DNA from: Melioribacter roseus
Lineage (GTDB): Bacteria; Bacteroidota; Ignavibacteria; Ignavibacteriales; Melioribacteraceae
Length of the DNA: 48,266 bases
Reading direction: 5' to 3'
Assembly (NCBI GenBank): GCA_020726285.1
Contig: DYSW01000003.1
Coordinates: 94,990-143,255, forward strand
Numbering within the stretch: the stretch's first letter is position 1; every line of letters begins with the position of its first letter. The position numbers and the translations under genes are program-made. The notes under the pieces were generated by a model, which did no database searches, was not told the origin of the DNA, and saw nothing but the letters and a program-made list of their open reading frames with translations. This document shows positions 36,377 to 39,455 of this stretch, piece after piece.

Positions 36377-37156
36377 CTACTCTTCAATGATTAGATGTGT
36401 AACTAAATCTTTGGGAATTTCCTCAAAATAATGATTTTCAGCAATTCTAAAATTGCACGCTTCACCGTAAATTTCCAAATTACTATGAATACTTTGCATT
36501 AGAGTTTTTTCTCGCGAGAATTTCGATTTTTCTGATAAAACAATAAACGGTTTATTATAATATTTGCACAAAATTGCTAAATTCTTAGAACCAATTTTGT
36601 TTATCACGTTTTGATTTTCCAAAATCTTATCTGTTCCAATTATGCACAAATCAGATTTTTCAACAAATTTGGAATGCATAGCTTCTGTAATTAGAGAGAC
36701 ATTATCCGAAAATTCTGATAGTTTGTTTGCTAATAATCTTCCTTCATTTACAGGTCTACTTTCAGAAATATAATATTCTAAATCTGGAAAATCTTTTACT
36801 GCAAGTTCAAGCACAGAAAGCAGAGTTTTACTATTAGAAATTGTGATGATTTTTGCTTTTGGAAAAAGATGTGGTTTCAAATTCAAATAAATTCCAAGAA
36901 AAACATTTTGTCTGTTTTTTTCAAAATCAAGTAAATACTGAAGGTAATTTTTATTTTCAATTCGACTTAATTTATCGAAATAATCTTCAATAGCTGCGTA
37001 AGGGCGAAAATGATTTCTTAAAATGACTATAAAATCTGAAATATCGTCATTCTTCTCAAATTCAACTCTAAGAAAAGTATTTATTTTAAGTAGTAATTCT
37101 AAACTACCAGATTTATTGTCGCCAAGTATTTTTGCTAGAGATAAGTTAGTTTCCAT
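36377..37156 (-). CDS. eIF2B/MtnA/ribose-1,5-bisphosphate isomerase-like protein
   Basis: A 259-residue protein of the initiation factor 2B-like sugar-phosphate isomerase family. Its C-terminal two thirds has ITISNSKTLLSVLELA, YYISESRPVNEGRLLANKL, IIGTDKILENQNVINKIGSK and KPFIVLSEKSKF, in the family order. The Asp of the family active site is present (Asp176), but the Cys found in MtnA and ribose-bisphosphate isomerases is missing: the strand reads TISNSKT where enzymes have a Cys (as in THCNS). The start is the ATG at 37156; a TTG at 37171 is also open. It overlaps the stress protein gene by 11 bp. It may act on a sugar phosphate or may be a regulatory relative. Confidence 0.75.
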   Translation of the reverse strand: METNLSLAKILGDNKSGSLELLLKINTFLRVEFEKNDDISDFIVILRNHFRPYAAIEDYFDKLSRIENKNYLQYLLDFEKNRQNVFLGIYLNLKPHLFPKAKIITISNSKTLLSVLELAVKDFPDLEYYISESRPVNEGRLLANKLSEFSDNVSLITEAMHSKFVEKSDLCIIGTDKILENQNVINKIGSKNLAILCKYYNKPFIVLSEKSKFSREKTLMQSIHSNLEIYGEACNFRIAENHYFEEIPKDLVTHLIIEE

Positions 37157-37622
37157 TTTGGTTAAATTCAAATCCTTTAATTGGTTCGCGTAAAGTTAAA
37201 ACTGGACAAGGAGCTTTTCGAACAACTTTTTCAGCAGTGCTACCAAAGAAAATGTGTTCAATACCTGTGTGTCCGTGAGTTGCGATAATTATCAAATCGG
37301 CATCAATTTCTCTTGCAGTTTCGTTGATTTGAGAAAATGGTCTTCCAGTTTTTATAATTATTTCCCAATCAACTTTATCAGAAATATTTGATTCAGCAAG
37401 AATCTTTAATTCAGATTTCGCTTTTTCAGCCAAATCTTCTTGATGAGAAATTGGAATTACTTCACCAAAAGAAAAATCTGTTGGGTAAATAATAGGTTCA
37501 AAAACATAAACCAAATAGATTTTAGAATTCATCTTTTGTGCGAATTCAGAAGCATATTCCAAAGCTTTTTTTGAATAATCAGAAAAGTCGATAGGAACCA
37601 TAATTTTTTTAATTGTAAACAT
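37146..37622 (-). CDS. Universal stress protein UspA family
   Basis: A single UspA domain of 158 residues. It starts MFTIKKIMVPIDFSDYSKKA and has an ATP-binding-type motif ATHGHTGIEHIFFGSTAEKV (115-134), followed by APCPVLTL. Such proteins bind ATP or AMP. The gene has an AGGAGG site and lies between a HisA-like and an eIF2B-like gene on one strand, which makes it a possible nucleotide-sensing part of that operon. Confidence 0.9.
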   Translation of the reverse strand: MFTIKKIMVPIDFSDYSKKALEYASEFAQKMNSKIYLVYVFEPIIYPTDFSFGEVIPISHQEDLAEKAKSELKILAESNISDKVDWEIIIKTGRPFSQINETAREIDADLIIIATHGHTGIEHIFFGSTAEKVVRKAPCPVLTLREPIKGFEFNQNGN

Positions 37623-37630
37623 AAAACCTC

Positions 37631-38383
37631 CTAATTGAATAGTCCTTGTTCAGCTTGTCGCCATAATTTCTGGCAAGAAAATCTATTTTCGTATAAAGCT
37701 CTGCCGATAATTGCAGCATCAACTCCAGATTCTACTTCAGCCTGAAGCAAAAGTAAATCTTCGTAAGTTGTAATGCCACCACTATGTGTAACTTTTATTC
37801 CAGTTTCAAGAGCAATAGTTCGAGAAAGTTCAATATTTGCTAGTCCAAGCATTCCATTTCTTGCAATATCAGTAACTATAAATCTTTCAACTCCCATTTC
37901 TTTCATTTCGGAAGCAATTTTCAAAGGTAATTTTCCACTTCTATCATGTCTGGAATGAACAAGTACTTCGTTTTCACGAACATCAATTGCTGCTGAAATT
38001 CTTGATGGACCAAATTTATCTAAGATTTTTAAGAATTCCTTTTTATCATCAAAAAAAAGTGAACCAACAACAAGTCTGTAAACACCAAGGTCAAATAAAA
38101 TTTCTGCCGTTTCTAATGAATGAATTCCACCACCATATTCTATTGGAATTACAACACTTTGACACATTTCTCCAATGATTTCAAAATTTCTATTCTCTGC
38201 TTGATGCACAGCATCAAAATCAACAACATGAAGGATTTTTGCGTTTTCTGTTCTCCAAATCATAGCCATTTCTAATGGATCATTGCCATAATTTGGCGTA
38301 TTTAATTCTGGAATTCCTTGTACAATTCTTACAGTTTTTCCGTATTTAATGTCTATTGATGGAATAATCAGTAGTCTTTTCAT
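37631..38383 (-). CDS. HisA-like phosphoribosyl isomerase
   Basis: A 250-residue TIM barrel of the HisA/HisF family. The N-terminal IPSIDIKYGKTVRIVQG carries the catalytic Asp (Asp11), the first phosphate site is in EYGGGI, and the C-terminal half has FIVTDIARNGMLG (Asp172) and SGGITTYEDL. In histidine synthesis HisA isomerises ProFAR by an Amadori rearrangement. Here no other his gene is present, and the phosphate motif reads ARNGMLGLAN where HisA has SRDGTL.GPN, so a different substrate is possible. It is first in an operon with a stress protein and an eIF2B-like protein. No ribosome site is evident. Confidence 0.8.
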   Translation of the reverse strand: MKRLLIIPSIDIKYGKTVRIVQGIPELNTPNYGNDPLEMAMIWRTENAKILHVVDFDAVHQAENRNFEIIGEMCQSVVIPIEYGGGIHSLETAEILFDLGVYRLVVGSLFFDDKKEFLKILDKFGPSRISAAIDVRENEVLVHSRHDRSGKLPLKIASEMKEMGVERFIVTDIARNGMLGLANIELSRTIALETGIKVTHSGGITTYEDLLLLQAEVESGVDAAIIGRALYENRFSCQKLWRQAEQGLFN

Positions 38384-38567: not shown

Positions 38568-39455
38568 ATGAAAAAAATCTTCACAATACTAAGCATAGTA
38601 TTGGCAATTAATATTGCAAACGCACAAAAAACAGATTTAATATTTTCTGAATACATTGAAGGAAGTAGCAATAATAAAGGTCTTGAAATCTATAATGGAA
38701 CAGGAAATACTGTAGATCTAAGTCAATATTCAATAAAACAATCTGTAAATGGTGGCGATTGGCAATATACTCACACTTTTCCTGCTGGAGCAACATTAGC
38801 AAATGGAGCTGTTTGGGTAATTATTACTAGTCAAGTTGACCCAGCACTATTTCCGGCAGCAAATGCTAATGAAGTACTTTCTTATCCAAGTGTAACACAC
38901 CACAATGGTGATGATGCAAGAGCTTTAGTAAAAGGTGAAACAATTATTGATGTGATTGGAATTCCAACAGAAGACCCAGGTGATGGTTGGTCAGTTGCGG
39001 GAATAGCAAACGCTACTAAAGATCATACTTTAGTTAGAAAATCTTCTGTAACAGGTGGAAATATAAATTGGACTGCAGCATCTGGTACAAATTCTACTGA
39101 TTCAGAATGGATTGTTTACGAAGTAAATGACTTTTCACACTTAGGAACACATTCTATGTCAGTTGGAATTGATGATAATGGAGTTCAAGTTGAAACATAT
39201 TCTTTAAGCCAAAACTACCCAAATCCTTTTAACCCAAGTACTCAAATCAACTTTAGTTTAGCAGAAAATGGATTTGTAAGTTTGATAGTGTTTAATATGT
39301 TAGGACAAAAAGTAGCAACATTGATAAGCAGAGAAATGACAAGTGGCGTACACAACTTTAACTTTGATGCAAGCAATTTGTCAAGTGGAATTTATTTCTA
39401 CACGCTTAAATCTGCTAACTTCTCAGCTACTAAGAAAATGATTCTGATGAAATAA
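38568..39455 (+). CDS. Secreted lamin-tail domain protein with T9SS sorting domain
   Basis: A 295-residue exported protein. The signal peptide is residues 1-19 (cleavage ANA-Q). A lamin-tail (LTD) domain runs from about 22 to 195, starting DLIFSEYIEGSSNNKGLEIY and rich in beta strands. The C-terminal domain from 213 has SQNYPNPFNPSTQI, then VFNMLGQKVATL, LSSGIYFYTLKS and KKMILMK. This is a type A sorting domain read by the type IX secretion system, the NPFNPST form being common in Ignavibacteria and relatives. It has an ATGGAGTCCTT ribosome site. It is likely released or attached at the cell surface; the function of the LTD domain is unknown, though it often accompanies surface nucleases. Confidence 0.88.
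   Translation: MKKIFTILSIVLAINIANAQKTDLIFSEYIEGSSNNKGLEIYNGTGNTVDLSQYSIKQSVNGGDWQYTHTFPAGATLANGAVWVIITSQVDPALFPAANANEVLSYPSVTHHNGDDARALVKGETIIDVIGIPTEDPGDGWSVAGIANATKDHTLVRKSSVTGGNINWTAASGTNSTDSEWIVYEVNDFSHLGTHSMSVGIDDNGVQVETYSLSQNYPNPFNPSTQINFSLAENGFVSLIVFNMLGQKVATLISREMTSGVHNFNFDASNLSSGIYFYTLKSANFSATKKMILMK

What the first reader, a model, noticed from the sequence alone, without database searches (positions are those of the whole stretch)
36377..38383. HisA-like, universal stress protein and eIF2B-like cassette: candidate undescribed sugar-phosphate pathway
Two different ribose-phosphate isomerase folds flank a nucleotide-binding stress protein on one strand, with gaps of 8 bp and an 11-bp overlap. 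Both isomerase-like proteins depart from known enzymes: the HisA-like protein has ARNGMLGLAN in its phosphate site and no his neighbours, and the eIF2B-like protein lacks the family's active-site Cys but keeps the Asp. eIF2B-like enzymes include ribose-1,5-bisphosphate isomerase of archaeal AMP salvage. The cassette could process or sense a phosphoribosyl metabolite under energy stress.
Basis: inference. Interest (0 to 1): 0.6.

Follow-up and report, generated by a model that had tools for sequence, protein, structure and literature searches.

The report
Retired histidine enzyme in stress cassette
Across an order of bacteria (Ignavibacteriales), the original histidine-making enzyme HisA seems to have been replaced by an imported one and kept, with its key catalytic residue changed, beside a stress protein and a second altered isomerase; the set looks more like a metabolite sensor than a pathway, but its function is untested.

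Summary
The three ORFs are real. hisA-like and usp are linked in every ortholog examined (79/79 distinct loci), usually with a cyclic-nucleotide-binding gene between them (70/79; missing in the window's genus), and the eIF2B-like gene follows in 33/79. The HisA-like protein is not this genome's ProFAR isomerase: the genome has no hisD, hisF, other hisA, trpF or trpC. Most relatives carry a separate canonical hisA-hisF. By tree, signature and a published hint, it descends from the vertical Chlorobi/Rhodothermota-type HisA, displaced by a horizontally acquired his operon and kept in 21 of 22 relatives that lack hisD. All 91 members carry N at the catalytic Asp175/176 position and R (one K) at substrate-stacking Trp145 (D and W in all 32 intact HisA compared), while D11, D134 and phosphate motifs stay. 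The eIF2B-like protein likewise has Ser at the catalytic Cys in 40/40 members, keeping Asp and ligand residues. Best reading: two ligand-binding 'pseudo-isomerases' plus nucleotide-binding proteins form a sensor or regulatory cassette. Linkage and substitutions are shown, origin is supported by tree; ligand and output are inferred.

The parts
37631..38383 (-). HisA2: HisA-like (beta/alpha)8 barrel, displaced vertical HisA
   Evidence: PF00977 201.8 bits; TIGR00007 203.5 bits against cut-off 228.95; orthologs in the order; tree; AlphaFold model pLDDT 85, PDB best match PriA/HisA
37856..37858 (-). Asn176 codon (AAT) at the position of catalytic Asp175 of M. tuberculosis PriA / Asp176 of Salmonella HisA
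   Evidence: N in 87/87 order members and 4/4 of sister family f13; D in 18/18 his-type HisA of the same subfamily and 14/14 canonical Ignavibacteriales HisA
37949..37951 (-). Arg145 codon (AGA) at the position of substrate-stacking Trp145
   Evidence: R in 86/87 (one K) and 4/4; W in 18/18 and 14/14
37146..37622 (-). Universal stress protein (Usp)
   Evidence: PF00582 123.3 bits; present downstream of hisA2 in 79/79 distinct loci with enough sequence
36377..37171 (-). Short eIF2B/RBPI/MtnA-fold protein; TTG start at 37171 or ATG at 37156
   Evidence: PF01008 101.9 bits; AlphaFold pLDDT 92.9, matches archaeal eIF2B-like protein, eIF2B and RBPI; 33/79 distinct loci have it downstream of usp
36836..36838 (-). 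Ser112 codon (TCT) at the position of the catalytic Cys of MtnA/RBPI
   Evidence: S in 40/40 members; aligns with Cys of the genome's own MtnA, L233
37623..37630 (-). 8-bp spacer where relatives carry a ~185-aa cNMP-binding gene (absent here)
   Evidence: Relatives L041-L057 and f13 loci have hisA2-cNBD-usp; 70/79 loci; own genome has only a distant 27%-identical CNB protein elsewhere

Best explanation
The cassette is a ligand-sensing module, not a pathway. Its first gene is the lineage's original HisA, displaced when the ancestor gained a his operon by horizontal transfer, then retained and changed: the general acid Asp became Asn and the substrate-stacking Trp became Arg, while the base Asp11, Asp134 and both phosphate-binding motifs stayed. 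It should bind a (bis)phosphorylated ribose-type compound without isomerising ProFAR. The last gene is an eIF2B/RBPI-fold protein in which the nucleophilic Cys is fixed as Ser but the sugar-phosphate residues remain, so it too should bind rather than turn over its ligand, as human eIF2B-alpha does with sugar phosphates. Usp, and in most relatives a cNMP-binding protein, add nucleotide binding. Together they would report phosphoribosyl or adenylate status to a partner not yet identified. Shown here: linkage, substitutions, purifying selection, independence from his and trp synthesis, origin by tree. Inferred: ligand identity, absence of catalysis, physical interaction, output.
For: Linkage in all 79 distinct loci tested, also in sister family f13. 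N176 in 91/91 and R/K145 in 91/91 against D and W in 32/32 intact HisA. Full-length HisA2 in 73/77 relatives; 21 of 22 genomes without hisD keep it; trpF and IGPS absent in the own genome. Tree: HisA2 plus f13 (96/98) inside the subfamily that holds his-operon HisA of other families (95/96), apart from canonical Ignavibacteriales HisA (98/91). PMC8305728 infers that the I. album and M. roseus his operon came by HGT, and notes that Chlorobi-Rhodothermota HisA have an extra C-terminal peptide. PMC13055916: PriA Asp11/Asp175 catalytic; Trp145 stacks ProFAR. PDB titles: 5a5w, HisA D7N D176A with ProFAR; 5yfs, RBPI C135S in complex. eIF2B-like S112 40/40, D181, R139, N191, K192 kept. Sugar phosphates bind eIF2B-alpha in the ancestral catalytic pocket (PMC8187479). 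Ka/Ks 0.07-0.18.
Against: No binding or activity data exist. D11, D134 and T171 (T or C) remain, so another reaction on a related substrate is possible; Asn could stand in for Asp in a different chemistry. The eIF2B-like gene is absent from many loci, so it may be an accessory. No output partner is conserved. Shared operon does not prove shared function; in the window's genus one member (cNBD) is missing at this site.
Confidence: 0.5

Rival explanations
1. HisA2 is a neofunctionalised enzyme that acts on a different phosphorylated substrate with Asp11/Asp134 chemistry, and the linked genes only regulate or accompany it.
For: D11, D134, T/C171 and D172 invariant or nearly so, phosphate motifs intact; PriA paralogs such as SubTrpF2 and AdeK show that HisA-family enzymes change function with changes at the same set of positions (PMC13055916).
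Against: The general acid shared by HisA and PriA is replaced in every member; no conserved enzyme of a recognisable pathway sits in the operon; Usp and cNMP-binding are regulatory folds.
Confidence: 0.33
2. It is an ordinary HisA (or bifunctional PriA/TrpF-type) enzyme that still works despite its sequence.
For: PF00977 and fold match; it is the only HisA in this genome.
Against: No hisD, no hisF, no trpF, no IGPS in the genome; D176N and W145R fixed; scores below the TIGR00007 cut-off; canonical HisA coexists in most relatives.
Confidence: 0.05
3. The genes are co-transcribed by chance of local genome order and have no common function; HisA2 has some unrelated structural or moonlighting role.
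For: The eIF2B-like gene is elsewhere in one family; other class families keep differently degenerate HisA homologs beside dap genes or a PorZ-like gene.
Against: hisA2 and usp stay adjacent or one gene apart in 79/79 distinct loci while flanking genes change.
Confidence: 0.12

Closest known systems
Chlorobi/Rhodothermota-type HisA (ProFAR isomerase), PF00977/TIGR00007
   Same: Same subfamily by tree and by the C-terminal ENxFxCQxxW segment; D11, D134, T171 and phosphate motifs.
   Different: D176N, W145R, GIPE loop 1, outside his operons, kept where hisD is missing.
Actinobacterial PriA and its paralogs (SubTrpF2, AdeK; PMC13055916)
   Same: HisA-family proteins that shifted function through changes at Trp145 and other substrate positions.
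   Different: HisA2 also loses the general acid (Asp175 equivalent), has no trp link, and belongs to a different subfamily from a different phylum.
Ribose-1,5-bisphosphate isomerase / MtnA (PF01008)
   Same: Fold; Asp, Arg, Asn-Lys and Glu of the pocket kept in the eIF2B-like protein.
   Different: Catalytic Cys is Ser in 40/40; shorter N-terminal part; the genome has a separate canonical MtnA.
Human eIF2B-alpha (PMC8187479) and archaeal eIF2B-like 1vb5
   Same: Members of the same fold; eIF2B-alpha, a non-catalytic one, binds sugar phosphates in the ancestral catalytic pocket.
   Different: Bacterial, no eIF2 or GEF subunits, linked to Usp and HisA2.

Membership tests
HisA (ProFAR isomerase) | (beta/alpha)8 HisA/HisF fold and PF00977 | tested here: met
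HisA (ProFAR isomerase) | TIGR00007 equivalog cut-off 228.95 bits | tested here: not met
   203.5 bits
HisA (ProFAR isomerase) | General base Asp (D11) and Asp134 (PriA Asp130) | tested here: met
   87/87 order members
HisA (ProFAR isomerase) | Catalytic Asp175/176 | tested here: not met
   N in 91/91
HisA (ProFAR isomerase) | Trp145 that stacks ProFAR | tested here: not met
   R or K in 91/91
HisA (ProFAR isomerase) | Histidine pathway in the genome | tested here: not met
   no hisD, no hisF
HisA (ProFAR isomerase) | ProFAR isomerase activity | not testable with these tools
   needs assay or complementation
PriA / TrpF | Fills a trpF gap in a trp pathway | tested here: not met
   trpF and IGPS both absent in own genome
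HisF2/AglZ/WbuZ | NCBIfam equivalog cut-off | tested here: not met
   96.8 against 310 and 95.2 against 299.7 bits
RBPI / MtnA isomerases | Catalytic Cys | tested here: not met
   Ser112 in 40/40
RBPI / MtnA isomerases | Catalytic Asp and pocket R, N, K | tested here: met
   D181, R139, N191, K192 invariant
RBPI / MtnA isomerases | NCBIfam equivalog cut-offs | tested here: not met
   72.3 against 314.1; 51.9 against 279
Universal stress protein | PF00582 over cut-off | tested here: met
   123.3 bits

The most novel reading that the evidence does not exclude
An undescribed, order-wide bacterial metabolite-sensing cassette built on two retired isomerases, a displaced HisA and a Cys-to-Ser eIF2B/RBPI-fold protein, that bind phosphoribosyl or sugar phosphates and act with Usp and a cNMP-binding protein: a bacterial parallel to sugar-phosphate sensing by eukaryotic eIF2B.
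Probability: 0.35. Interest if true: 0.75.

Novelty: new variant of a known kind. Interest (0 to 1): 0.6.

Why it matters
It appears to be a case where horizontal acquisition of a pathway freed the original enzyme for a new role that then became fixed across an order, even in species that lost the pathway. Annotation pipelines may call it HisA, which would give false histidine-pathway genes in Ignavibacteriales that lack the pathway. If the sensor reading holds, eIF2B-type sugar-phosphate sensing has a bacterial counterpart.

Tried and rejected
Considered and rejected: (1) genuine HisA: his pathway missing and catalytic residues changed. (2) PriA-like TrpF replacement: tested with PF00697 and PF00218; own genome lacks both. 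(3) WbuZ/HisF2 amidation protein: far below cut-offs. (4) Pseudogene: Ka/Ks 0.17 and order-wide retention. (5) Horizontal origin of HisA2: the tree puts it with the vertical subfamily; the canonical his operon of the order is the transferred one per PMC8305728. (6) A fuller pathway around it: the acyl-CoA dehydrogenase upstream is next to hisA2 in only 24 of 79 loci, so not taken as a core part.

Full report
Observation. Pfam assigns His_biosynth, Usp and IF-2B far over cut-off. The HisA-like protein falls below the curated TIGR00007 score (203.5 against 228.95) and the eIF2B-like protein far below every isomerase equivalog.

Place. The window lies in a 2.06-Mb draft genome of 140 contigs, completeness 100% by the tool's table. 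The nearest public relative is a 'Melioribacter roseus' MAG, SulCav_AS07-7, and nearly all named relatives found are Ignavibacteriales or filed under a parent group.

Not this genome's histidine enzyme. The genome has no hisD. Its only full PF00977 protein is this one; the rest are weak partial hits to other barrels. It also lacks trpF and IGPS, so a PriA-type dual role is excluded by pathway context. Of 77 relatives (own genome included), 73 have a full-length ortholog at 49-100% identity; G002 and the fragmentary G023 are incomplete genomes, while G066 and G074 lack it. hisD is missing in 22 of 77, and 21 of those 22 keep the HisA-like gene. Relatives that make histidine mostly carry a second, canonical HisA at 27-37% identity beside hisF, with the normal DG and GW motifs. 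I call the window protein HisA2.

Conserved linkage. In 79 distinct HisA2 loci with enough downstream sequence, usp follows in 79, a ~185-aa cyclic-nucleotide-binding protein (PF00027) in 70, always before usp, and the eIF2B-like gene in 33 (order shown). The window's genus lacks the cNMP-binding gene at this site, and the own genome has only a distant homolog (27%) elsewhere. An acyl-CoA dehydrogenase gene is directly upstream on the same strand in 24 loci. In family f3 the eIF2B-like gene is elsewhere in the genome. The short eIF2B-like family is found in 50 of 77 relatives, and in a phylum-wide sample in 20 genomes of the order and 4 of the class only.

Changed active sites. Across 87 distinct HisA2 of the order and 4 of sister family f13, position 176 is Asn in all and position 145 is Arg (one Lys). 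In 18 subfamily HisA from other families and 14 canonical Ignavibacteriales HisA they are Asp and Trp without exception. The 18 were picked as having an intact site, so for them this is a definition rather than a test; the 14 canonical ones are an independent comparison. Published numbering from M. tuberculosis PriA makes Asp11 and Asp175 catalytic, and says Trp145 stacks on ProFAR with Asp130 and Thr170 holding the loop (PMC13055916). D11, D134 and D172 are invariant, T171 is T or C, and GG and GR phosphate motifs are retained. The AlphaFold model (pLDDT 85) matches PriA and HisA, including 5a5w, titled Salmonella HisA D7N D176A with ProFAR: a double mutant altered at both catalytic positions that still holds substrate. 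For the eIF2B-like protein, position 112 is Ser in 40/40 and aligns with Cys of the genome's own MtnA (L233); Asp181, Arg139, Asn191 and Lys192 are invariant. Its model (pLDDT 92.9) matches the P. horikoshii eIF2B-like protein, human eIF2B and RBPI, among them 5yfs, titled RBPI C135S in complex with a ribose ligand. Both proteins thus carry, fixed across the family, substitutions resembling those crystallographers use to trap ligands. That is suggestive of binding without turnover, not proof.

Origin. A maximum-likelihood tree puts HisA2 and f13 together (96/98) in a well-supported subfamily (95/96) with HisA of other class and phylum families, several of them beside hisF; canonical Ignavibacteriales HisA form a separate clade (98/91). 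Subfamily members share the C-terminal ENxFxCQxxW segment. Independently, PMC8305728 reports that Chlorobi and Rhodothermota HisA carry an extra C-terminal peptide that the HisA of Ignavibacterium album and Melioribacter roseus lack, and infers horizontal transfer of their whole his operon. In the passages I read, that paper does not mention a second HisA. The simplest history is that HisA2 is the displaced vertical HisA, freed by the incoming operon and then changed; a duplication with later transfer of the operon is not excluded.

Mechanism. Ka/Ks between the window and its nearest species is 0.17 (hisA2), 0.18 (usp) and 0.07 (eIF2B-like), so the genes are kept for a function. I favour a sensor or regulatory module that reads phosphoribosyl, sugar-phosphate or adenylate status (confidence 0.5). 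[quoted passage not shown] The main rival is a new enzymatic activity using D11/D134 (0.33). Ligand, interaction partners and output are not shown.

Wider pattern, not followed far. Other class families keep differently changed HisA homologs in other conserved settings, which hints that HisA retirement and reuse is recurrent in this superphylum.

Noticed in passing
L200, L201, L202, L206, L207, L208, L211, L212 (class families f5, f14, f20, f24): HisA homologs, most with other changed catalytic positions (D11 to E or, in L207, R; L201 looks intact), next to a PfkB-like kinase and, in most, dapB, dapA and dapD: a second conserved setting for a possibly retired HisA.
   Followed up: partly
L204, L205, L210 (class families f8, f15): HisA homologs with D176 to V and T171 to Q; in L205 and L210 downstream of a PorZ-like type IX secretion propeller protein (PF21544 hit for L205).
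   Followed up: no
L101, L102, L103: HisF-like proteins of relatives lacking the first catalytic Asp, probably the HisF2/AglZ/WbuZ amidation type.
   Followed up: no
38568-39455: Divergently transcribed Lamin-tail-domain protein with a type IX secretion sorting domain.
   Followed up: no
L041:1477-2679: Receiver-plus-GAF protein directly downstream of the eIF2B-like gene on the same strand in L041; a gene of the same cluster follows in L044. A possible output partner in some species.
   Followed up: no
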